A DNA stretch of 10,574 bases from Anaerolineaceae bacterium (GTDB taxonomy: Bacteria > Chloroflexota > Anaerolineae > Anaerolineales > Anaerolineaceae): NCBI GenBank assembly GCA_014860845.1, contig JACZIY010000200.1, positions 1 through 10,574 of the forward strand, in the 5' to 3' direction. Shown piece after piece: positions 1-8,899 of the stretch. The notes under the pieces are model-generated. The model was not told the origin of the DNA and made no database searches. It was given only the letters and a program-made list of their open reading frames with translations. Made by a program: the position numbers and the translations under genes. Each line of letters starts with the position of its first letter. Position 1 is the stretch's first letter.

Positions 1-531
1 GATGTGGTGTATTTACGATTTGATAAGCAGGGAATTCCACGCCCATTATTGTTAGACTTAGGTGTAGGAGATTTGAATAACAATATTTCTCAAATCTGGA
101 ATGATCAGTACAATTTACCAGCGTACACTGCACCTGAAATCCTTAATCAAAATAACACCATCAACTATTCAGCTGATGTTTACGGTATTGGTTTATTATT
201 GTACGAGATGTTGACCGGAAAACCAGCCTATGAATATCACCTGAAAAAAGATGGTATTGTTGCTTTTTCAGTAAAAACTGGAGTTTTTAAACCGACCGGC
301 AGGATTGATTTAAAAGATATTCCCACCATTGTAGAAAAAGCGATTAATATCCAACCGCAGGCTCGCTATCCGGATGTTTTATCTTTGGTAAATGCACTAA
401 AACCGTATTTTCCTCCCATACCAGCTGAGAAAAAATCAAGAGGTATTAACTGGAAAATTGTTTTTATTGTTTTAGCTGCTCTGTTGGCTATCTCACTCAT
501 TCTAAGTTTTGCAATTTCGCTCGTTTCATAG
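1..531 (+). CDS. Ser/Thr protein kinase-like protein, C-terminal part, tail-anchored (5' end outside window)
   Basis: This is the C-terminal lobe of a eukaryotic-type protein kinase; the frame is already open at base 1, so the N-lobe and catalytic loop lie outside the window. Counting from the first codon, visible landmarks are the DLG version of the Mg-binding DFG motif (residues 19-21), the APE motif closing the activation segment (44-46), the DVYG of helix F with its invariant Asp (59-62) and the subdomain XI arginine (122). After a short Pro/Lys linker, a hydrophobic helix (about 152-174) ends almost at the stop, so the kinase domain should be cytoplasmic and anchored by its tail. The retained DLG and APE motifs argue for an active enzyme, but the catalytic HRD and the ATP-binding lysine cannot be seen. 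The gene lies 18 bases upstream of an EssC-like ATPase, in the place where the pseudokinase EssB/YukC sits in Firmicutes type VII loci. Whether it is an EssB counterpart or a true kinase is inference. Confidence 0.85.
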   Translation, partial: DVVYLRFDKQGIPRPLLLDLGVGDLNNNISQIWNDQYNLPAYTAPEILNQNNTINYSADVYGIGLLLYEMLTGKPAYEYHLKKDGIVAFSVKTGVFKPTGRIDLKDIPTIVEKAINIQPQARYPDVLSLVNALKPYFPPIPAEKKSRGINWKIVFIVLAALLAISLILSFAISLVS

Positions 532-538
532 AAAACGG

Positions 539-543
539 GGAGG
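539..543 (+). promoter_or_regulatory. Ribosome binding site fixing the TTG start of the EssC-like gene
   Basis: GGAGG, within the longer GGGGAGGT at 537-544, ends six bases before the TTG at 550, which is good spacing. The ATG at 545 abuts this site and is followed after one codon by TGA, so it cannot start the protein. There is no other start codon between the preceding stop and 550. Confidence 0.75.
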
Positions 544-549
544 TATGAA

Positions 550-3500
550 TTGACAGAAAAAATATATATCGATCGACCACCCCGCATTGAACCGGAACTA
601 CCATCAGGTGTTCGCGAAATTCCTAATCCACCCGATGTAGAAACCAATCCGGGTGCGATTATGGCGCAAGCGTTTTTACCCATGATCATGATCTTCGGTT
701 ATATTCTGGTATCTATGTTTGGCCAGAGTACCAGCATGCTGATGATGATCCCCATGGCACTTTCTGTTGTTGCCTCTGTTGCCCTGGCATTTTATACCAA
801 CCGACAGGAAAAAGTTCGACGTGAACAATTAAAAGAGACATATCAACGTCGCATCAGTGAACTACGGCGGCAAATGGAGAGTGAACAGGAGCAACAAAAA
901 ATTTATTATTACTATAATTATCCAAATCCAGATGTGTCTCTGGCAATGGCAGAAGATATAGCTCGCGATGAACCATTACGTCGAGAAGATATTCGTTCCG
1001 GTACCCGTATTTGGGAACGCAGACCTACTGATCATGATTTTTTATACTTACGATTGGGTATTTCCACACGCGCTTCGACTGTGGTCTACAAAATTTCTGA
1101 TAATGAGCAGGTGGAAAATCCACTGACGCGTGAAGCCACCCGGCTGGCAGAATCATCTCGTCTATTGTTTGATGTGCCAGTTACCATCCCTTTGTATTTT
1201 CAAATCGATGAAAAGGAACAAAAGAAAGTTGAAGCGAAAGCACAGGACAATGAAGAGGGTGGGGAGTCTTCCGGGGAAGAAAAAAAGGTCACCATCCGGC
1301 ATTCAATAGGAATCGCAGGGGATTCTGAAGAAATTGTGCATTCCTACCTGCGCACCATGCTGGTGGATTATGCCACTTTTCACAGTCCACAGGACACCAT
1401 GTTATATGTAGCCGGTACCAGTGAGATGCGTAAACATTGGCGTTGGGCTTATTCACTTCCCCATTGTAAAGAAGCTGATAAAAGTGAAACCCTGTGTTTT
1501 GAGAGTGAAGAAAGACCCGGTGAAAACGAAGTTGACCGCATGCGCCTTTTCTGGAAGAATTTACGCACCATCCTCGAACGCAGACGAATGCGTTTGCAGG
1601 ATAAGGAAAGTGGTGTGGATGTTAAATTACCATTTTTGTTGGTGATTGTGGATGTGCAAACAGTTGCTCCTGAATGGTCCATAATGAGAGATCTTGAAGG
1701 AGAAGCAACCATTTCCACCATTCTTTTGGATGGTCAAACTTTAGGGGCTGGAATTCTGTTTGTTGTACCGGACCGTAAGAAGGTCCCCAGCCGCGCTCAG
1801 GCAGTTATCGAAGTGGGTATTGATCCGATTGATCAAGAAAGTGCCATCTTTCGTTATGCAGAGACCGGCTTTAATACTGTTCGATATGTAGGTTCAACGA
1901 AATTAGTCAGCACCCAGGAGAAAGCGCGTGCTTTTTCAAAAGCCCTGGAACCACTGGATATCCGGCGTGGTTATGGTTCCAGTCTGGCATCTACGGTAAC
2001 ATTGTTGGAAATGCTAAATGTTTCCACCATCGATGAGTTGCAAGAAATGGCGGCTGAAAACTGGAAACGCAGCATGACACCCAACCAGGCTGATTGGTTA
2101 TACACAGCTGTCGGTTTACTTTCCGGCAACGAACCCAGAACATTGACCTTTTCAGCCAAAGCAGATGGTGTGCATGGATTGATCGCTGGATCTACCGGAT
2201 CTGGAAAATCAGAATTGTTGATGACGATGATCATTGGTATGGCACTGAATTTTAATCCCGATGTGCTCAACTTTGTCTTGATTGACTATAAAGGTGGTTC
2301 AGCATTCGAGCCTTTCAAAAAATTACCCCATAAAGTGGATATTGTCACCAACCTGGATCAATCCGCCACCGCGCGTGTCTTTGCTTCGATCATTGCTGAG
2401 CTGGATCGTCGACAGAAATTAAACACCTACACCAACTCGAAAGACATTGTGCATTATCGTAAGAAGGGGTTGAACCTCGAACCGGGACGTCCTCCTTATC
2501 CGCACCTTTTCATTATTATTGATGAATTCGCGGAAATGATTTCCGGAAACGCAGAATATAAAGCCCAATTAGAGAGTATTACGCGTTTGGGTCGTGCTTT
2601 GGGTGTGACTTTGATCTTAGCCGCACAACGTCCGGTGGGGGTAACCGACCAGATGCGTGCCAATATTAAATTCAGGATCTGTCTGCGTGTGGAAACTCCG
2701 GATGACAGCCGGGAATTATTACGTCGTGCTGATGCTGCCTTCCTGCCACCTGGTATTCCGGGTCGTGGGTATTTGCAGGTTGGTAATGAGAATATTGAAT
2801 TAATTCAAACGGCTTATACAGGCGGTGATTACAAAGGCCCGCAGGAAGAGAATGTTACCCCGAATGTGATCTGGCTGGATCGAGCTAAAAAATCCGCGGC
2901 TCAAAAAGCGGTAGAACCGCCAAAATTGTACGATGTGATTGTGGACATGCTTGCCAATCTGGCGACTACCGAATCCCGTCCTCAATGGCGGCCATGGCCG
3001 GAGTTTCTACCTCCTCAAACAGTCAAGAATGTGCTCAGCCTTGAAACCCCACTGGATACTGCTTACATGACAGATGATGATATCGACATGCTGAAGCAAA
3101 CGGACGCTGTGGGTGTCACTGGTATGTCTCTGAACGAAAAAGCAATTACTTTCTGGAAGGATGATTTCAAATGGGAAGGTCTGATTTGGGGTAAAAACAC
3201 CATGCGACCGCTTATTGGTCTGGTTGACAATCCTTATCTTGCCAGCCAAAAACCATTGATGATAAACTTCCCCAATGGTCATGCGGCTGTATTTGGTGCA
3301 TCTGGGCGTGGAAAAACCACTTTTGTTAGAACAGTCATTTCATCTCTGGTATTGACGCATTCACCAGATGATTTACATATTTATATTCTGGATTTTGGAG
3401 GCCGTGCGTTAAACGTCTTCCTGGATTTACCGCATGTAGGTGCAATCATTACCTCTGAGGAAGAAGAACGGGTCATGCGCGTACTTCGCAAGGTCAATGA

Positions 3501-5079
3501 AATCATTGAACAGCGCCAGGTCCTTTTCAGTGAAGAACGCGTGAATAGTCTTGAAACACATAATCATAATTATCCTGACAAGAAATTACCTGCTGTACTG
3601 GTAGTTATTGATAATTTTGCTGAATTCAGAGAGTATTACGATGGTTTGATGAGCCCATTGATTGGTCTGATACGAGAAGCAAGGGCGTATGGTGTCTATT
3701 TCCTGATAACTGCTGACGTTGCGAATGCGTTGACGGGAAAATTATTCAACCTGATTGCAGAAAGATTCACACTCAAACTTTCTGATCCCAGTGAATATGG
3801 AGATATAGTGGGTCGGGGCGTACCAGCTGATCTATCGAATGTCCCAGGCCGTGGATATGTCAGAATGGGAAATATGCCGCTGGAGTTTCAGACCGCATTA
3901 TCATTCAATCCCGAAGAAAATGACTCTGATAGTCTTGGTAAATTGAACAAGATGTGCTTGAAAATGCAAGCGTTATGGAATAATAACTGGCAAGGTGAGA
4001 AACCATCCACGATTGAGACATTGCAGTTGAGAATCTCACTGGAACGGTTAATGCAGGAAGCGACATGGCCAATTGGCAAACGTTTGAACATCTTAATGGG
4101 TATAGATGATCGTTCATTGGAACCAGCATTTATTGATATTGAGCGCCAAGGTCCACATATTGTGGTACTTGGTCAACCTTTCTCCGGTAAAACCACCACA
4201 TTACAGACCATGATCTTTTCTCTGGCAGCTAATTATGATCCTGATACATTAGGCATGGTGTTAATCGATTATTCTCGGAAATTGTGGAAAGGTAGTGACC
4301 ATTCCATGAATGAACTTCCACATGTATTGGATGCGATTGAGGAAATTGATCAATTAGATGATTTATTAGAGAATGTACGAGAGGAATGTCTTGATTTTGA
4401 GAAGAATCCGAAGAGAAGAAAATTATTACTGGTCATTGATAATTATGACTCCTTCTCCGATGAATCCAGTAGAAAGAAGATGAATTTCTTTGAAGAACTT
4501 TCTGGTTTGGTGCGCAAGTATCAAACAGCTGGTGTCTATATTATCGCTGCCGGTTCGATTAGCATGATGAATGCATCTGATGATTTACGCAAGGTTATTA
4601 CAGCGCCCAATTTTGGTATTGCGTTGAAGAGCTCTGACGCAGTCAACCGCTTGAATGGTCGCTTCCCACGAAGCCTCAATGAAGTGGAACTTCCAATGGG
4701 TCGTTCCTTCATTGTAAGATCTGGTATCACCACCATGCTTCAAATCGCAACTCCTCACTCCAGCGATGATGATATGGAAGGATCGGTAGATCATTGGGTC
4801 AAGAAGATTACCAAACAATACCCGAAAAAACAAGGGAAGTGGATTCGCGTACCCAAGCCAAAAGATGGAAAAAAGGAAGAGGGTGGTTCTGGCAAAAGTA
4901 GTGTCAGTTCGACATCTGGGGTGGATATTTCTAAATACAATATTGAAGAAGTCAAACAAAAATTACGTGATGCCGGTATGGATGAAGATATGATGAAGAT
5001 TCTCTCGAATAGCGATTTGATTGAAACAGCTAGATCATTGGGACTTTTCGATGAAGGTAAAGAAACCCCTGAGGATTAA
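550..5079 (+). CDS. essC: EssC/EccC-family FtsK/SpoIIIE ATPase, type VII-like secretion motor
   Basis: This 1509-residue membrane ATPase belongs to the family that powers export of WXG100-type substrates in type VII secretion. Two transmembrane helices (about 37-57 and 62-81) are followed by a charged coiled coil (86-117), a D0-like region (about 120-470) and three tandem FtsK-type ATPase modules. Module 1 has Walker A GSTGSGKS (547-554), Walker B LFIIIDEF with the catalytic Asp-Glu at 658-659, and the family motif AAQRP (691-695). Module 2 has GASGRGKTT (916-924) and module 3 GQPFSGKTT (1208-1216), but both have Asp-Asn instead of Asp-Glu in Walker B (1021-1022, 1297-1298). Only module 1 therefore looks fully catalytic, as known for EccC/EssC. 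Unlike Firmicutes EssC there is no N-terminal FHA pair; the protein reaches its membrane helices within 40 residues. A Ser/Gly linker leads to a small C-terminal helical domain (about 1455-1500). The start is TTG with a strong ribosome binding site. The FHA protein gene follows after three bases. Confidence 0.9.
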   Translation: MTEKIYIDRPPRIEPELPSGVREIPNPPDVETNPGAIMAQAFLPMIMIFGYILVSMFGQSTSMLMMIPMALSVVASVALAFYTNRQEKVRREQLKETYQRRISELRRQMESEQEQQKIYYYYNYPNPDVSLAMAEDIARDEPLRREDIRSGTRIWERRPTDHDFLYLRLGISTRASTVVYKISDNEQVENPLTREATRLAESSRLLFDVPVTIPLYFQIDEKEQKKVEAKAQDNEEGGESSGEEKKVTIRHSIGIAGDSEEIVHSYLRTMLVDYATFHSPQDTMLYVAGTSEMRKHWRWAYSLPHCKEADKSETLCFESEERPGENEVDRMRLFWKNLRTILERRRMRLQDKESGVDVKLPFLLVIVDVQTVAPEWSIMRDLEGEATISTILLDGQTLGAGILFVVPDRKKVPSRAQAVIEVGIDPIDQESAIFRYAETGFNTVRYVGSTKLVSTQEKARAFSKALEPLDIRRGYGSSLASTVTLLEMLNVSTIDELQEMAAENWKRSMTPNQADWLYTAVGLLSGNEPRTLTFSAKADGVHGLIAGSTGSGKSELLMTMIIGMALNFNPDVLNFVLIDYKGGSAFEPFKKLPHKVDIVTNLDQSATARVFASIIAELDRRQKLNTYTNSKDIVHYRKKGLNLEPGRPPYPHLFIIIDEFAEMISGNAEYKAQLESITRLGRALGVTLILAAQRPVGVTDQMRANIKFRICLRVETPDDSRELLRRADAAFLPPGIPGRGYLQVGNENIELIQTAYTGGDYKGPQEENVTPNVIWLDRAKKSAAQKAVEPPKLYDVIVDMLANLATTESRPQWRPWPEFLPPQTVKNVLSLETPLDTAYMTDDDIDMLKQTDAVGVTGMSLNEKAITFWKDDFKWEGLIWGKNTMRPLIGLVDNPYLASQKPLMINFPNGHAAVFGASGRGKTTFVRTVISSLVLTHSPDDLHIYILDFGGRALNVFLDLPHVGAIITSEEEERVMRVLRKVNEIIEQRQVLFSEERVNSLETHNHNYPDKKLPAVLVVIDNFAEFREYYDGLMSPLIGLIREARAYGVYFLITADVANALTGKLFNLIAERFTLKLSDPSEYGDIVGRGVPADLSNVPGRGYVRMGNMPLEFQTALSFNPEENDSDSLGKLNKMCLKMQALWNNNWQGEKPSTIETLQLRISLERLMQEATWPIGKRLNILMGIDDRSLEPAFIDIERQGPHIVVLGQPFSGKTTTLQTMIFSLAANYDPDTLGMVLIDYSRKLWKGSDHSMNELPHVLDAIEEIDQLDDLLENVREECLDFEKNPKRRKLLLVIDNYDSFSDESSRKKMNFFEELSGLVRKYQTAGVYIIAAGSISMMNASDDLRKVITAPNFGIALKSSDAVNRLNGRFPRSLNEVELPMGRSFIVRSGITTMLQIATPHSSDDDMEGSVDHWVKKITKQYPKKQGKWIRVPKPKDGKKEEGGSGKSSVSSTSGVDISKYNIEEVKQKLRDAGMDEDMMKILSNSDLIETARSLGLFDEGKETPED

Positions 5080-5082
5080 AGT

Positions 5083-6099
5083 ATGGATGATTATATTGAT
5101 GTAAAAATAAATGTTTTTGAACATACCGGGCAGCATGCTCGGGTGCGTAGATCAATTACTGTTAAAACGTTAATTGACGAGATCCTGAAAGAATTTGACG
5201 ATGTTGATGCTGAATCACCTGAAAAATACAGTATCCAATTAAAAGGTGTAGAAAAACCACTGAACCCTAATCAAACCCTTACCCAGCTGGATATCCAACC
5301 TCAGGATGAGTTGAATGTAGGCTATCTGCATCAAACCATCCGAAAAATGCTGGATCCAAAAGACCATGCTACCTTGCGCGAAGAAACTTCCAATATCACT
5401 TTTGATATCCAATGGACGCCTGCCATCATTGGTCGCCCGAGTACCGATGTCAATCACAACATCATGCTGGCGGTCAACATGCAGATTCTGGCCATTGGAA
5501 TGACCATTTCGCGCAAACATGCTCAAATTGTGTTCTCAGAAGGTTCGTTTTTTATCGAACCGGCTGCAGCCAATAATCCGACTTACCTGAATGGAAAATT
5601 GTTAGCGGTAAACACCATGAACAAACTCAAAAGTGGTGATCGATTGGCATTTGGTCAACACAAGGTCAGCTTTGTTTTCACGACCAAATCACAACCTGTT
5701 TCGTATGGCATGGACCCCTCCGAGCCGATCAGTAAACCGGTTGCTACTCCAGCAGAGGAATTTCACACTCGCGTGGCACCTTCTAAAACCGGGATGGCAA
5801 CCCTGGTGATTGAAAAATCATTGAATCTATCTAATATTGGGCAACGAATTCCACTCCAGAATTTACCCTTGGTAGTTGGACGTATCATTCCATTTTTCTC
5901 CAGTGAGGGCGATATCTCCAGGCAACATGCAGAGATCAATTTTGATCCAGGAACGAACATGTATACTATCCAAGATTTGAATAGCACCAATGGTGTTACT
6001 TTAAACGGACAGAGAATAGAACCGCAAAAAGTGTACCAATTACATTCTGGAACGAAGATCGGGCTTGGGAAAGTGATGGTATTAGAGTTTCAAACTTAA
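5083..6099 (+). CDS. YukD/EsaB-like ubiquitin-fold protein fused to two FHA domains
   Basis: This 338-residue soluble protein has three domains. Residues 1-83 look like the ubiquitin-like YukD/EsaB protein of type VII loci: the start MDDYIDVKINVFEHTG resembles the first strand and turn of YukD, and LDIQPQDELNVGYL the last. Residues about 103-200 form FHA domain 1, with GR at 117-118, SRKHA at 143-147 and NG at 170-171. Residues about 239-336 form FHA domain 2, with VGR at 265-267, SRQHA at 279-283, and STNG (301-304) followed by a second NG (308-309). The Arg, Ser and Asn positions that contact phosphothreonine in known FHA domains are present, most clearly in domain 2. No signal peptide or membrane helix is seen, so it should be cytoplasmic. 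GAGGA at 5071-5075 sits seven bases before the ATG, inside the end of the ATPase gene, which indicates close translational linkage. Inferred role: a phospho-dependent adaptor between the kinase and the ATPase. The fold calls are firm for FHA and good for the ubiquitin-like part. Confidence 0.85.
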   Translation: MDDYIDVKINVFEHTGQHARVRRSITVKTLIDEILKEFDDVDAESPEKYSIQLKGVEKPLNPNQTLTQLDIQPQDELNVGYLHQTIRKMLDPKDHATLREETSNITFDIQWTPAIIGRPSTDVNHNIMLAVNMQILAIGMTISRKHAQIVFSEGSFFIEPAAANNPTYLNGKLLAVNTMNKLKSGDRLAFGQHKVSFVFTTKSQPVSYGMDPSEPISKPVATPAEEFHTRVAPSKTGMATLVIEKSLNLSNIGQRIPLQNLPLVVGRIIPFFSSEGDISRQHAEINFDPGTNMYTIQDLNSTNGVTLNGQRIEPQKVYQLHSGTKIGLGKVMVLEFQT

Positions 6100-6214: not shown

Positions 6215-8413
<2,199 letters not shown>

Positions 8414-8473: not shown

Positions 8474-8899
8474 TCATTGATCAAGATGTCCTGACCTTTT
8501 CGATTTGCAGTTTGGACAAAGACCATAAAATGCAAATTGGGATCGTATGATCTCAAACCGAGAATTTTCTTCTAATCGTTGAATCGTTTCAACATCCAGG
8601 TCAAAATCACCATCTACGATTTGATTACACTCAGTACATATGATGTGGGGGTGAGGTTCGGGACGATTGCCATCATAATGACTGTCCCCATGTAAATCGA
8701 TTTCCAGAATTTGATTCAAATCCTTAAGCAGTCCTAATGTATTGTAATCCGTTGCCTGACTCATGGATGGAAATTGATGTTTAATGGTTTCATAGATCTG
8801 TGCAGCACTGGGGTGTCCATTACTGGCTGCAATGATCCGAACCAATTCAAGCCTTTGGGGTGTCATCCGGTAACCTTGGTTTTTCAAACCAGTAATCAA
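8474..8899 (-). CDS. perR: PerR-type peroxide-sensing Fur-family repressor
   Basis: This Fur-family metal-dependent repressor has an N-terminal winged helix and a C-terminal dimerisation domain. Numbered from the TTG at 8899 (141 residues), two CxxC pairs for structural zinc are at Cys88/Cys91 and Cys128/Cys131. The regulatory-metal ligands expected for PerR are His29 (equivalent to oxidisable His37 of the Bacillus subtilis protein), Asp76, His83, His85 and Asp96. Asp rather than Glu at 96 favours PerR over Fur. Two features are odd. The frame stays open for 19 codons upstream of TTG, and the codons just before it (HPDVRFDE) look like the missing part of Fur helix 1, yet that stretch has no ATG, GTG or TTG. 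An ATT at 8947-8945, six bases after AAGGA, is a possible start giving 157 residues. In the recognition helix the usual ATVY is ATDY (Asp51). It is followed by katG and preceded by a Per box, which supports peroxide-responsive autoregulation. Confidence 0.92.
   Translation of the reverse strand: MITGLKNQGYRMTPQRLELVRIIAASNGHPSAAQIYETIKHQFPSMSQATDYNTLGLLKDLNQILEIDLHGDSHYDGNRPEPHPHIICTECNQIVDGDFDLDVETIQRLEENSRFEIIRSQFAFYGLCPNCKSKRSGHLDQ

What the first reader, a model, noticed from the sequence alone, without database searches (positions are those of the whole stretch)
1..6099. Type VII-like secretion core with rearranged domains
Three abutting genes encode a tail-anchored kinase-like protein, an EssC/EccC-type ATPase with three modules, and a ubiquitin-like/FHA/FHA protein. 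In Firmicutes, EssC itself has two N-terminal FHA domains, YukD/EsaB is a stand-alone ubiquitin-like protein and EssB/YukC is a pseudokinase membrane protein. Here the same parts appear, but the FHA pair has moved to the ubiquitin-like protein and the kinase-like domain keeps DLG and APE motifs. This suggests a distinct, possibly phospho-regulated type VII lineage. No WXG100 substrate or EsaA-like protein is in view.
Basis: partly seen in the sequence, partly recalled or inferred. Interest (0 to 1): 0.72.

Follow-up and report, generated by a model that had tools for sequence, protein, structure and literature searches.

The report
Type VII secretion variant in Chloroflexota
This stretch holds the end of an operon for a protein-export machine of the type VII kind, in a bacterial group where such machines have hardly been described; its regulatory parts are put together differently, and its relatives carry four distinct small export partners instead of the usual one or two.

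Summary
The three genes are real and correctly located. They are the 3' end of a type VII secretion (T7SS) operon; the window starts inside the first gene. Relatives with upstream sequence show the missing part: a vWA-TM-FHA protein, a WXG100-headed Gly-rich protein and four tandem WXG100 proteins. All four WXG100 types occur in 52 of 58 loci with at least 5 kb upstream; their order follows their tree. The 44 window-type ATPases I placed form one clade apart from the EccC and EssC references, from Chloroflexota except one probably misbinned MAG. EssB/YukC and EsaA reach their cut-offs in 0 of 20 genomes. FHA on the ubiquitin-like protein is confirmed in 67 of 67 loci, but 47 have one FHA and only 20 the pair; 'moved' is not shown. 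The 'kinase that keeps DLG and APE' is a pseudokinase: the catalytic HRD Asp, just outside the window, is absent in 48 of 48 relatives, while the FHAs keep the phosphothreonine contacts that EssC lacks. Best reading: a new T7SS subtype in which a ubiquitin-like/FHA adaptor bridges a tail-anchored pseudokinase and the ATPase. New variant of a known kind.

The parts
1..531 (+). C-terminal half (176 aa, 5' end cut by the window start) of a tail-anchored, Hanks-fold pseudokinase; relatives add an N-terminal C4 zinc-ribbon-like motif and the N-lobe
436..528 (+). single C-terminal transmembrane segment of the pseudokinase (residues 146-176 of the ORF), nothing after it
   Evidence: hydropathy scan; C-terminal helix 330-353 of 355 in the L017 model
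550..5079 (+). EccC/EssC-family FtsK/SpoIIIE ATPase, 1509 aa, TTG start after GGGGAGG; no N-terminal FHA domains
   Evidence: TIGR03928 718.3 bits, TIGR03924 451.2 bits, TIGR03925 349.4 bits over its cut-off; PDB sequence relatives 4nh0, YukB, EccC5; no FHA hit, hydrophobic stretch begins at residue 35
652..798 (+). membrane region of the ATPase (residues 35-83), long enough for two helices
   Evidence: hydropathy scan
2188..2211 (+). Walker A of FtsK module D1, GSTGSGKS; the only module with an Asp-Glu Walker B (IIIDEF at residue 655)
   Evidence: motif scan
3295..3318 (+). Walker A of module D2, GASGRGKT; Walker B-like VVIDNF lacks the Glu
   Evidence: motif scan
4171..4194 (+). Walker A of module D3, GQPFSGKT; Walker B-like LVIDNY lacks the Glu
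   Evidence: motif scan
5083..6099 (+). ubiquitin-like (YukD) - FHA - FHA protein, 338 aa, the proposed adaptor
   Evidence: Pfam FHA 100.5 bits, YukD 24.9 bits under its cut-off of 27; AlphaFold2 model pLDDT 83.5
5083..5325 (+). ubiquitin-like domain (residues about 1-81); the least firmly identified of the three domains
   Evidence: YukD match 21-72; strand-strand-helix-strand-strand order in the model; close relatives such as P0002 carry PF08817; YukD over cut-off in the second-type proteins of L088 and L092 but 19.0 bits in L047
5362..5691 (+). FHA1 (residues about 94-203), pThr contacts R118, S143, N165 kept
   Evidence: fold match to FHA domains; R 67/67, S 66/67, N 60/67 across loci
5791..6096 (+). 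FHA2 (residues about 237-338), present in 20 of 67 proteins, pThr contacts R267, S279, N303 kept

Best explanation
The window holds the last three genes of a type VII secretion operon of an Anaerolineales-type Chloroflexota bacterium, one member of a T7SS lineage that I found almost only in that phylum. Proposed working: the ATPase (membrane stretch, degenerate D0, D1-D3) forms the hexameric motor-pore, with D1 as the only module bearing a complete Walker B. Four upstream WXG100 proteins act as two complementary heterodimers: A1 and A3 carry the WxG turn, A4 carries the Tyr-xxx-Asp/Glu export motif. They lead out the WXG100-headed Gly-rich protein and other WXG100-headed proteins. The ubiquitin-like domain of the third protein docks on the ATPase, as the EccD ubiquitin-like domain does on EccC; its FHA domain(s) hold the tail-anchored pseudokinase, doing the work that EssC's own FHA domains do with EssB in T7SSb. 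A membrane protein with a probably extracytoplasmic vWA and a cytoplasmic FHA stands in for EsaA/EccB-type envelope parts. Shown: gene content, order, clade, pseudokinase motifs, FHA residues, no EssB or EsaA match over cut-off. Inferred from homology: ATPase motor and export of WXG100. Inferred only, about 45% likely: the adaptor bridging step. Inferred only, about 30%: that FHA binding is switched by phosphorylation by another kinase.
For: Operon and gene families. Relatives with the full cluster vWA-TM-FHA / WXG100-headed / four WXG100 / pseudokinase / ATPase / UBL-FHA; vWA+FHA confirmed by Pfam in L010, L021 and L050. Quartet: all four in 52 of 58 loci with at least 5 kb upstream; on a tree of 120 members labelled by position, 3 label changes, the minimum, against 66.9 in shuffles, positions 1, 3 and 4 each one side of a branch. 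WxG in 50/55 A1 and 55/55 A3, Y-xxx-D/E in 43/56 A4 against 11.3 expected. 19 of 20 genomes with WXG100 over cut-off. EssB/YukC over cut-off 0/20 (B. subtilis control over cut-off) and EsaA 0/20 (one of four ringing controls over cut-off, B. subtilis among the four). ATPase tree: the 44 window-type rows used in one clade, SH-aLRT 98. Catalytic Asp absent 48/48 while Lys69, Glu82 and Asp198 are invariant. FHA residues kept. Precedents in print: EssC FHA binds EssB pseudokinase (PMC9600267, passages); EccD ubiquitin-like domain binds the first NBD of EccC (PMC11217815, Discussion).
Against: No secretion has been shown for any member. The window's own upstream genes are not visible, so the quartet and the vWA protein are inferred from relatives. 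TIGR03928 and TIGR03924 cut-offs are missed. A2, A3 and A4 score under the Pfam WXG100 cut-off in L010, and A1 rarely carries Y-xxx-D/E (6/55), so the heterodimer pairing is a guess. Five of the 58 well-flanked loci lack the whole quartet and one lacks A4. The quartet tree rests on 98 columns with long branches, and position 2 needs two changes. The system is patchy: 11 of 400 phylum genomes with a full-length UBL-FHA match, 22 of 301 order genomes with an ATPase match. T7SSc-j reference ATPases were not in the tree, so it may be the sister of one of those.
Confidence: 0.8

Rival explanations
1. Phospho-switched T7SS: the tail-anchored protein is an active kinase that phosphorylates a component recognised by the FHA domains.
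For: VAIK Lys, alpha-C Glu and DLG Asp are invariant and the fold is a full PknB-like kinase; both FHAs keep pThr contacts.
Against: The HRD Asp is Cys, Gly, Asn or Ala and the Mg-binding Asn is never present in 48 of 48 relatives; the Gly-rich loop is not kept. The one HRD exception among 59 neighbours (L033) lacks the zinc ribbon and looks like a different, ordinary kinase.
Confidence: 0.07
2. Trans-phosphorylated version: a separate genuine Ser/Thr kinase phosphorylates the pseudokinase or the vWA-FHA protein, and the UBL-FHA adaptor binds the phosphothreonine, as FhaA does with the phosphorylated MviN pseudokinase in mycobacteria.
For: FHAs keep pThr residues, unlike EssC (PMC9600267 passages). 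ORFs of the kinase cluster with an HRDxKPxN motif lie in the fetched flanks of 17 of 79 loci, and ORFs of a PP2C cluster in 13 (Pfam confirms one such kinase, L022, and two such PP2Cs, L026 and L028). Precedent: PMC11898655 passages; PDB 3oun among the FHA fold matches.
Against: No such kinase was found in the flanks of the loci closest to the window (L001, L002, L010, L017, L018). No invariant Thr in the pseudokinase; the best is T222 in 39 of 48. Chloroflexota genomes hold many FHA proteins, so flank counts are weak evidence.
Confidence: 0.3
3. It is a Chloroflexota branch of one of the published variants T7SSc-T7SSj, most likely T7SSh-like (ATPase without FHA, kinase-like protein with one C-terminal TM and no extracellular domain).
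For: Those two features match T7SSh as described (PMC11217815, Results parts 1-2 of 3 read).
Against: T7SSh is described with one WXG100 component and a separate ubiquitin-related protein beside Tad pilus genes; here there are four WXG100 and a UBL-FHA fusion. The paper names only Bacillota and Actinomycetota and its text does not mention Chloroflexi.
Confidence: 0.15
4. A DNA-translocation or conjugation module that only resembles T7SS because of its FtsK/SpoIIIE domains.
For: FtsK, HerA and TraB-type models give weak hits.
Against: TIGR03928, TIGR03924 and TIGR03925 outscore the FtsK model (72 bits) by hundreds of bits; WXG100 genes sit in the cluster of relatives.
Confidence: 0.02

Closest known systems
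T7SSb (Ess/Yuk system of Bacillota)
   Same: EssC-family ATPase, ubiquitin-like protein, membrane pseudokinase next to the ATPase gene, WXG100 proteins, an FHA-pseudokinase pair among the subunits
   Different: FHA sits on the ubiquitin-like protein, not on the ATPase; no EssB/YukC or EsaA family member passes its cut-off in 20 genomes; the pseudokinase has a full PknB-like fold, a zinc-ribbon motif and nothing after its TM; four WXG100 instead of one
T7SSa (ESX systems of Actinomycetota)
   Same: ATPase without FHA, non-identical WXG100 partners with WxG and Y-xxx-D/E on different members, ubiquitin-like domain fused to another part
   Different: Ubiquitin-like domain fused to FHA, not to a polytopic EccD; no EccB or EccD match over cut-off in 20 genomes, though no control genome rang, so absence is not proved
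T7SSh of Bacillota (PMC11217815)
   Same: ATPase without FHA; kinase-like protein with a single C-terminal TM and no extracellular domain
   Different: Separate ubiquitin-related protein, one WXG100 component, Tad pilus neighbours; ATPase relationship not tested
T7SSc of Bacillota (PMC11217815) and further Chloroflexota T7SS loci (L088, L092)
   Same: ATPase without FHA, kinase-type and phosphatase genes about, vWA component in T7SSc
   Different: In the window type the vWA domain follows a signal-peptide-like segment and the protein ends in an FHA, whereas TscE is described as cytoplasmic; the kinase-like protein is dead, TscD's site is described as conserved. L088 and L092 have ATPases on other branches but also a YukD-FHA fusion
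FhaA - MviN of mycobacteria (not a T7SS)
   Same: FHA protein paired with a membrane-tethered pseudokinase
   Different: There the pseudokinase is a phosphorylated PknB substrate (PMC11898655 passages); here untested

Membership tests
Type VII secretion system (general) | membrane-bound EccC/EssC-family ATPase with tandem FtsK modules | tested here: met
   TIGR03925 over cut-off, TIGR03928 718.3 bits, PDB relatives T7SS ATPases, three Walker A motifs, membrane stretch
Type VII secretion system (general) | WXG100 family protein(s) in the cluster | tested here: met
   in relatives, not in the window itself, which is cut: L010 WXG100 42.5 and 35.0 bits, cut-off 27.3, three more under it; quartet in 52 of 58 loci; 19 of 20 genomes
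Type VII secretion system (general) | secretion of WXG100 proteins through the ATPase | not testable with these tools
   needs a secretome with and without the ATPase
T7SSb | N-terminal FHA domains on EssC | tested here: not met
   no FHA hit in the ATPase, membrane stretch starts at residue 35
T7SSb | EssB/YukC | tested here: not met
   PF10140 over cut-off in 0 of 20 genomes of relatives, one 20.5-bit stop-ridden match; B. subtilis control over cut-off
T7SSb | EsaA | tested here: not met
   TIGR03929 0 of 20; four controls ring, one over cut-off, B. subtilis among them
T7SSb | ATPase in the EssC clade and over the EssC model cut-off | tested here: not met
   718.3 against 778.4 bits; 0 of 20 genomes over cut-off; separate clade from three EssC references
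T7SSa | EccB and EccD | tested here: inconclusive
   0 of 20 over cut-off for each (one EccD match at 23.6 bits), but no control genome rang for either
T7SSa | ATPase in the EccC clade | tested here: not met
   two EccC references (L080, L083) fall on the other side of a branch with SH-aLRT 98; long EccC branches make their exact place unsure
T7SSh | kinase-like protein with one C-terminal TM and no extracellular domain | tested here: met
T7SSh | stand-alone ubiquitin-like protein | tested here: not met
   UBL and FHA1 regions both filled in 67 of 67 aligned proteins
T7SSc-T7SSj | ATPase in the matching TsxC clade | not tested
   no TsxC reference sequences were at hand
Active Hanks-type Ser/Thr kinase | catalytic Asp of HRD and Mg-binding Asn | tested here: not met
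   0 of 48 relatives; the window's own copy is cut just after this motif's place
Active Hanks-type Ser/Thr kinase | VAIK Lys, alpha-C Glu, DFG Asp | tested here: met
   K69, E82, D198 invariant in 48 rows; the window itself shows the DLG
Phosphothreonine-binding FHA | Arg, Ser and Asn of the binding site | tested here: met
   FHA1 67/67, 66/67, 60/67; FHA2 R and N 20/20; which residues matter is recalled; binding itself untested

The most novel reading that the evidence does not exclude
Chloroflexota carry a T7SS subtype of their own in which export obliges an ancient quartet of four WXG100 proteins (two heterodimers), and in which a ubiquitin-like/FHA adaptor is a detachable phospho-switch that clamps a nucleotide-binding pseudokinase to the motor, so that T7SS activity is gated by kinases elsewhere in the cell. 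The dead but Lys-Glu-Asp-preserving pseudokinase would be the readout of nucleotide or phospho state rather than the source of it.
Probability: 0.25. Interest if true: 0.8.

Novelty: new variant of a known kind. Interest (0 to 1): 0.6.

Why it matters
T7SS is discussed almost wholly for Actinomycetota and Bacillota; the 2024 survey of variants (PMC11217815) names T7SSa-j only there. The papers whose passages I saw mention Chloroflexi as holders of some WXG100 sequences or of predicted or listed T7SS/ESX systems, without describing their gene clusters. A third phylum with its own subunit set tells which parts are essential (ATPase, ubiquitin-like domain, WXG100) and which are exchangeable (EssB, EsaA, the place of FHA), and makes testable what the ubiquitin-like domain and the FHA-pseudokinase contact do, because here both partners of that contact are separable from the ATPase. 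The conserved WXG100 quartet is, on my reading of that survey's Discussion (most systems one EsxA; T7SSe and T7SSg a pair like T7SSa), without parallel.

Tried and rejected
Whole genome of the window: none held, so the upstream genes of this very organism could not be read. 'FHA moved from EssC': rejected as unproved; one FHA is the commoner state and FHA-less T7SS ATPases are known. 'Phospho-regulated because DLG/APE are kept': rejected as an argument. DNA-transfer module: rejected. EspG identity of the 265-aa neighbour family (f5): a profile of 21 members had no PDB sequence match at E up to 1, and the members scanned had no Pfam or NCBIfam hit; left open. EssB does not appear among the 50 listed fold matches of the pseudokinase model, which are PknB, PknA and eukaryotic kinases; this does not exclude kinship. 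The ubiquitin-like part is not among the listed VIA matches; Foldseek lists only linear ubiquitin at high rmsd. UBL-FHA profile across the phylum: 271 of 400 genomes matched at E up to 0.001, but nearly all listed matches cover the FHA part alone; 11 genomes exceed 190 bits over the full length. In the class-wide search 6 of 396 reached 1e-35. In both, at most 5-7 candidates per genome were scored, so counts are lower bounds. The order-wide ATPase count (22 of 301) includes three (G829, G845, G913) at 31-34% identity that are of another type. The locus scan kept the best 80 of 160 relatives, and the protein searches list 120 of 287 and 120 of 209 hits, few with an organism name, so 'only in Chloroflexota' is what I saw, not a survey of all phyla. 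A search with the L088 UBL-FHA protein gave 63 hits, of which 6, the query's own record among them, carry both YukD and FHA; the others match by FHA, so I cannot say whether the fusion exists outside Chloroflexota. The FtsK outgroup branch is very long and several rows have odd composition, so the root of the ATPase tree is unsure; L074, labelled Bacteroidetes, sits next to L071 and is probably a binning error. The vWA label of the second-type neighbour in L093 failed: Pfam finds only FHA there. Rows dropped: ATPase tree 44 of 80 window-type sequences (79 loci and the window); kinase alignment A3 48 of the 59 neighbours (L033, copies over 390 aa and four near-duplicates left out); quartet tree 30 of 49 four-member arrays.
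Full report
What is there. The window carries three co-directional genes at its start: a C-terminal kinase-like fragment (1-531), a 1509-aa FtsK/SpoIIIE ATPase (550-5079) and a 338-aa protein with a ubiquitin-like domain and two FHA domains (5083-6099). The two downstream genes begin 18 and 3 nt after the previous stop, each after a purine-rich stretch (GGGGAGG before TTG 550, GAGGA before ATG 5083). The rest of the window is an unrelated set: convergent catalase-peroxidase KatG, a Fur-family regulator closest to PerR models and a 4Fe-4S protein, then an AraC-family regulator on the plus strand.

Type VII membership of the core. The ATPase scores 718.3 bits against the T7SSb EssC model (cut-off 778.4), 451.2 against EccCa (cut-off 509.15) and 349.4 against EccCb, over its cut-off of 346.55; the FtsK model reaches 72 bits and conjugation models less. 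The best solved relatives by sequence are 4nh0, YukB 9qks and EccC5. It has an N-terminal hydrophobic stretch (35-83) and three Walker A motifs; only the first module has an Asp-Glu Walker B. No FHA domain is found on it, and 34 residues before the membrane leave no room for one.

What lies upstream. No whole genome is held for the window. A scan of GTDB genomes with an alignment of 15 ATPases gave 79 loci (the best 80 of 160 relatives were kept), all titled as Chloroflexota lineages except L074. ORF clustering showed, in relatives with intact upstream sequence (for example L001, L002, L010, L017, L018), the order vWA-TM-FHA protein (759-778 aa), a WXG100-headed Gly-rich protein (325-375 aa), four small proteins of 97-115 aa, the kinase-like gene, the ATPase and the UBL-FHA gene. 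Of the five WXG100-type proteins of L010, two pass the Pfam WXG100 cut-off and three score below it; NCBIfam gives the same picture. The vWA+FHA make-up is confirmed by Pfam in L010, L021 and L050; the cluster has members in 49 of 79 loci. In L010, L015 and L017 the same KatG and Fur-family genes, and in L010 and L015 the Fe-S gene, follow as in the window, so the window is a 5'-truncated view of this locus. The absence of WXG100 'in view' is a window-edge effect.

A WXG100 quartet. With profiles started from L001, L010 and L017, four classes A1-A4 were found in 55, 55, 55 and 56 loci. Of 58 loci with at least 5 kb before the ATPase, 52 have all four; L030, L033, L040, L064 and L076 have none and L035 lacks A4. 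In a tree of 120 proteins labelled only by position in the array (30 of 49 four-member arrays), the labels need 3 changes, the minimum, against 66.9 in shuffles; positions 1, 3 and 4 are each one side of a branch and position 2 lies between them with two changes. The tree has only 98 columns and some long branches. A1 and A3 carry WxG (50/55, 55/55), A2 and A4 do not (1/55, 0/56); Y-xxx-D/E near the C terminus is in 43/56 A4 (11.3 expected), 6/55 A1 (2.2), 2/55 A2 (4.7) and 1/55 A3 (4.1). That split recalls the two-part signal of EsxA/EsxB pairs (the motif's role is from memory), hence my proposal of two heterodimers, of which A3-A4 is the better founded. The 2024 survey describes one WXG100 in most systems and a pair in T7SSa, T7SSe and T7SSg (PMC11217815, Results part 1 and Discussion).

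The adaptor. UBL and FHA1 regions are both filled in all 67 proteins collected; the second FHA is present in 20. The ten two-FHA loci that were in the ATPase tree form one clade (SH-aLRT 100), with one-FHA loci L021, L024 and L027 as the next branches, so the pair is best read as a later addition. FHA1 keeps Arg 67/67, Ser 66/67 and Asn 60/67; FHA2 keeps Arg and Asn in 20/20. The YukD profile is under its cut-off in the window (24.9) and in L047 (19.0), over it in L088 and L092. In T7SSb the EssC FHA domains lack the phosphate contacts and bind the EssB pseudokinase, presumably without phosphorylation (PMC10765036 and PMC9600267 passages). The UBL of EccD interacts with the first NBD of EccC. 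Hence the reading of the third protein as a bridge between ATPase (through UBL) and pseudokinase (through FHA). Whether the FHA contact is phospho-dependent is open: kinase-cluster ORFs with HRDxKPxN lie in the flanks of 17 of 79 loci and PP2C-cluster ORFs in 13, but not near the closest relatives of the window (Pfam check of three of these). FhaA with the phosphorylated MviN pseudokinase is a precedent (PMC11898655, passages).

What is missing. In 20 genomes of relatives, EssB/YukC and EsaA give no match over cut-off, with controls ringing. EccD and EccB also give none over cut-off, but no control rang, so that is not proof.

Place in the family. In a tree of 60 ATPases (1082 columns; quick method, no bootstrap) the 44 window-type rows used form one clade (SH-aLRT 98) apart from two EccC, three EssC, three Streptomyces and seven other Chloroflexota sequences. 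Those seven are not one group (four label changes); two of their loci, L088 and L092, strikingly also have YukD fused to FHA, both domains over cut-off. T7SSc-j references were not available. The window-type system is patchy: 11 of 400 phylum genomes with a full-length UBL-FHA match, 6 of 396 class genomes at 1e-35, 22 of 301 order genomes with the ATPase, three of these of another type.

Literature. Nine searches of the held library (one search was on FhaA-MviN; two searches listed 30 of 329 and 10 of 333 papers) gave no description of a Chloroflexota T7SS gene cluster or of a YukD-FHA fusion among the papers whose passages I saw. Those mention WXG100 sequences, or predicted or listed T7SS/ESX systems, in Chloroflexi and WXG100-containing calpain homologues in Herpetosiphon; one states that Thermobaculum terrenum lacks type VII secretion. 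PMC3415414 only cites the 2011 survey of WXG100 systems, which is not held, so prior notice cannot be excluded. PMC11217815 was seen in its outline and Abstract, Results parts 1-2 of 3, Discussion and passages; its text has no mention of Chloroflexi.

Verdict.

Noticed in passing
L037, L047, L063 and other long-type loci: Chloroflexales, Herpetosiphon and some Anaerolineae relatives have ATPases of about 2900-3000 aa; the three examined for motifs have seven Walker A motifs, as if the D1-D2 pair had been tripled between the membrane part and D3.
   Followed up: partly
L088 (genome of L004), L089 (of L050), L090 (of L063), L091 (of L071), L092, L093, L094: Further T7SS-like ATPase loci of other branches exist in Chloroflexota, four of them in genomes that also hold the window type; L088 and L092 carry a YukD-FHA fusion, L088 WXG100 and an ordinary kinase, L092 a PP2C.
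   Followed up: partly
G014 and G015 (Herpetosiphon, loci L047 and L048): 19 and 18 WXG100 matches per genome, most in ORFs of about 340-470 aa, against 0-7 in the other 18 genomes: a likely large set of exported proteins in a genus known (recalled) for predation.
   Followed up: no
relatives, e.g. L022, L028, L037, L047: The kinase-like gene lies on the opposite strand to the ATPase in 33 of 59 loci (L033, an unrelated kinase, counted) and on the same strand in 26.
   Followed up: no
L082:1987-6152: In an Agathobacter rectalis plasmid T7SSb locus the FHA part is annotated as a separate gene between YukD and a shortened EssC, a natural case of FHA detached from the ATPase.
   Followed up: no
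window 6215-8413 and 8474-8899 (minus strand): KatG catalase-peroxidase beside a Fur-family, PerR-like regulator, an ordinary peroxide-response pair, convergent to the T7SS operon and syntenic in L010, L015 and L017.
   Followed up: no
L010:6205-7332, L017:6280-7362, L001:6338-7315: WXG100-headed Gly/Ser-rich protein before the WXG100 array, found in 15 loci; in L010 and L017 it has repeated FGAGQFG-like units and a small-residue-rich C terminus: candidate main substrate.
   Followed up: no
L074: A contig labelled Bacteroidetes carries an ATPase close to Chloroflexota L071 in the tree, probably a binning error.
   Followed up: no
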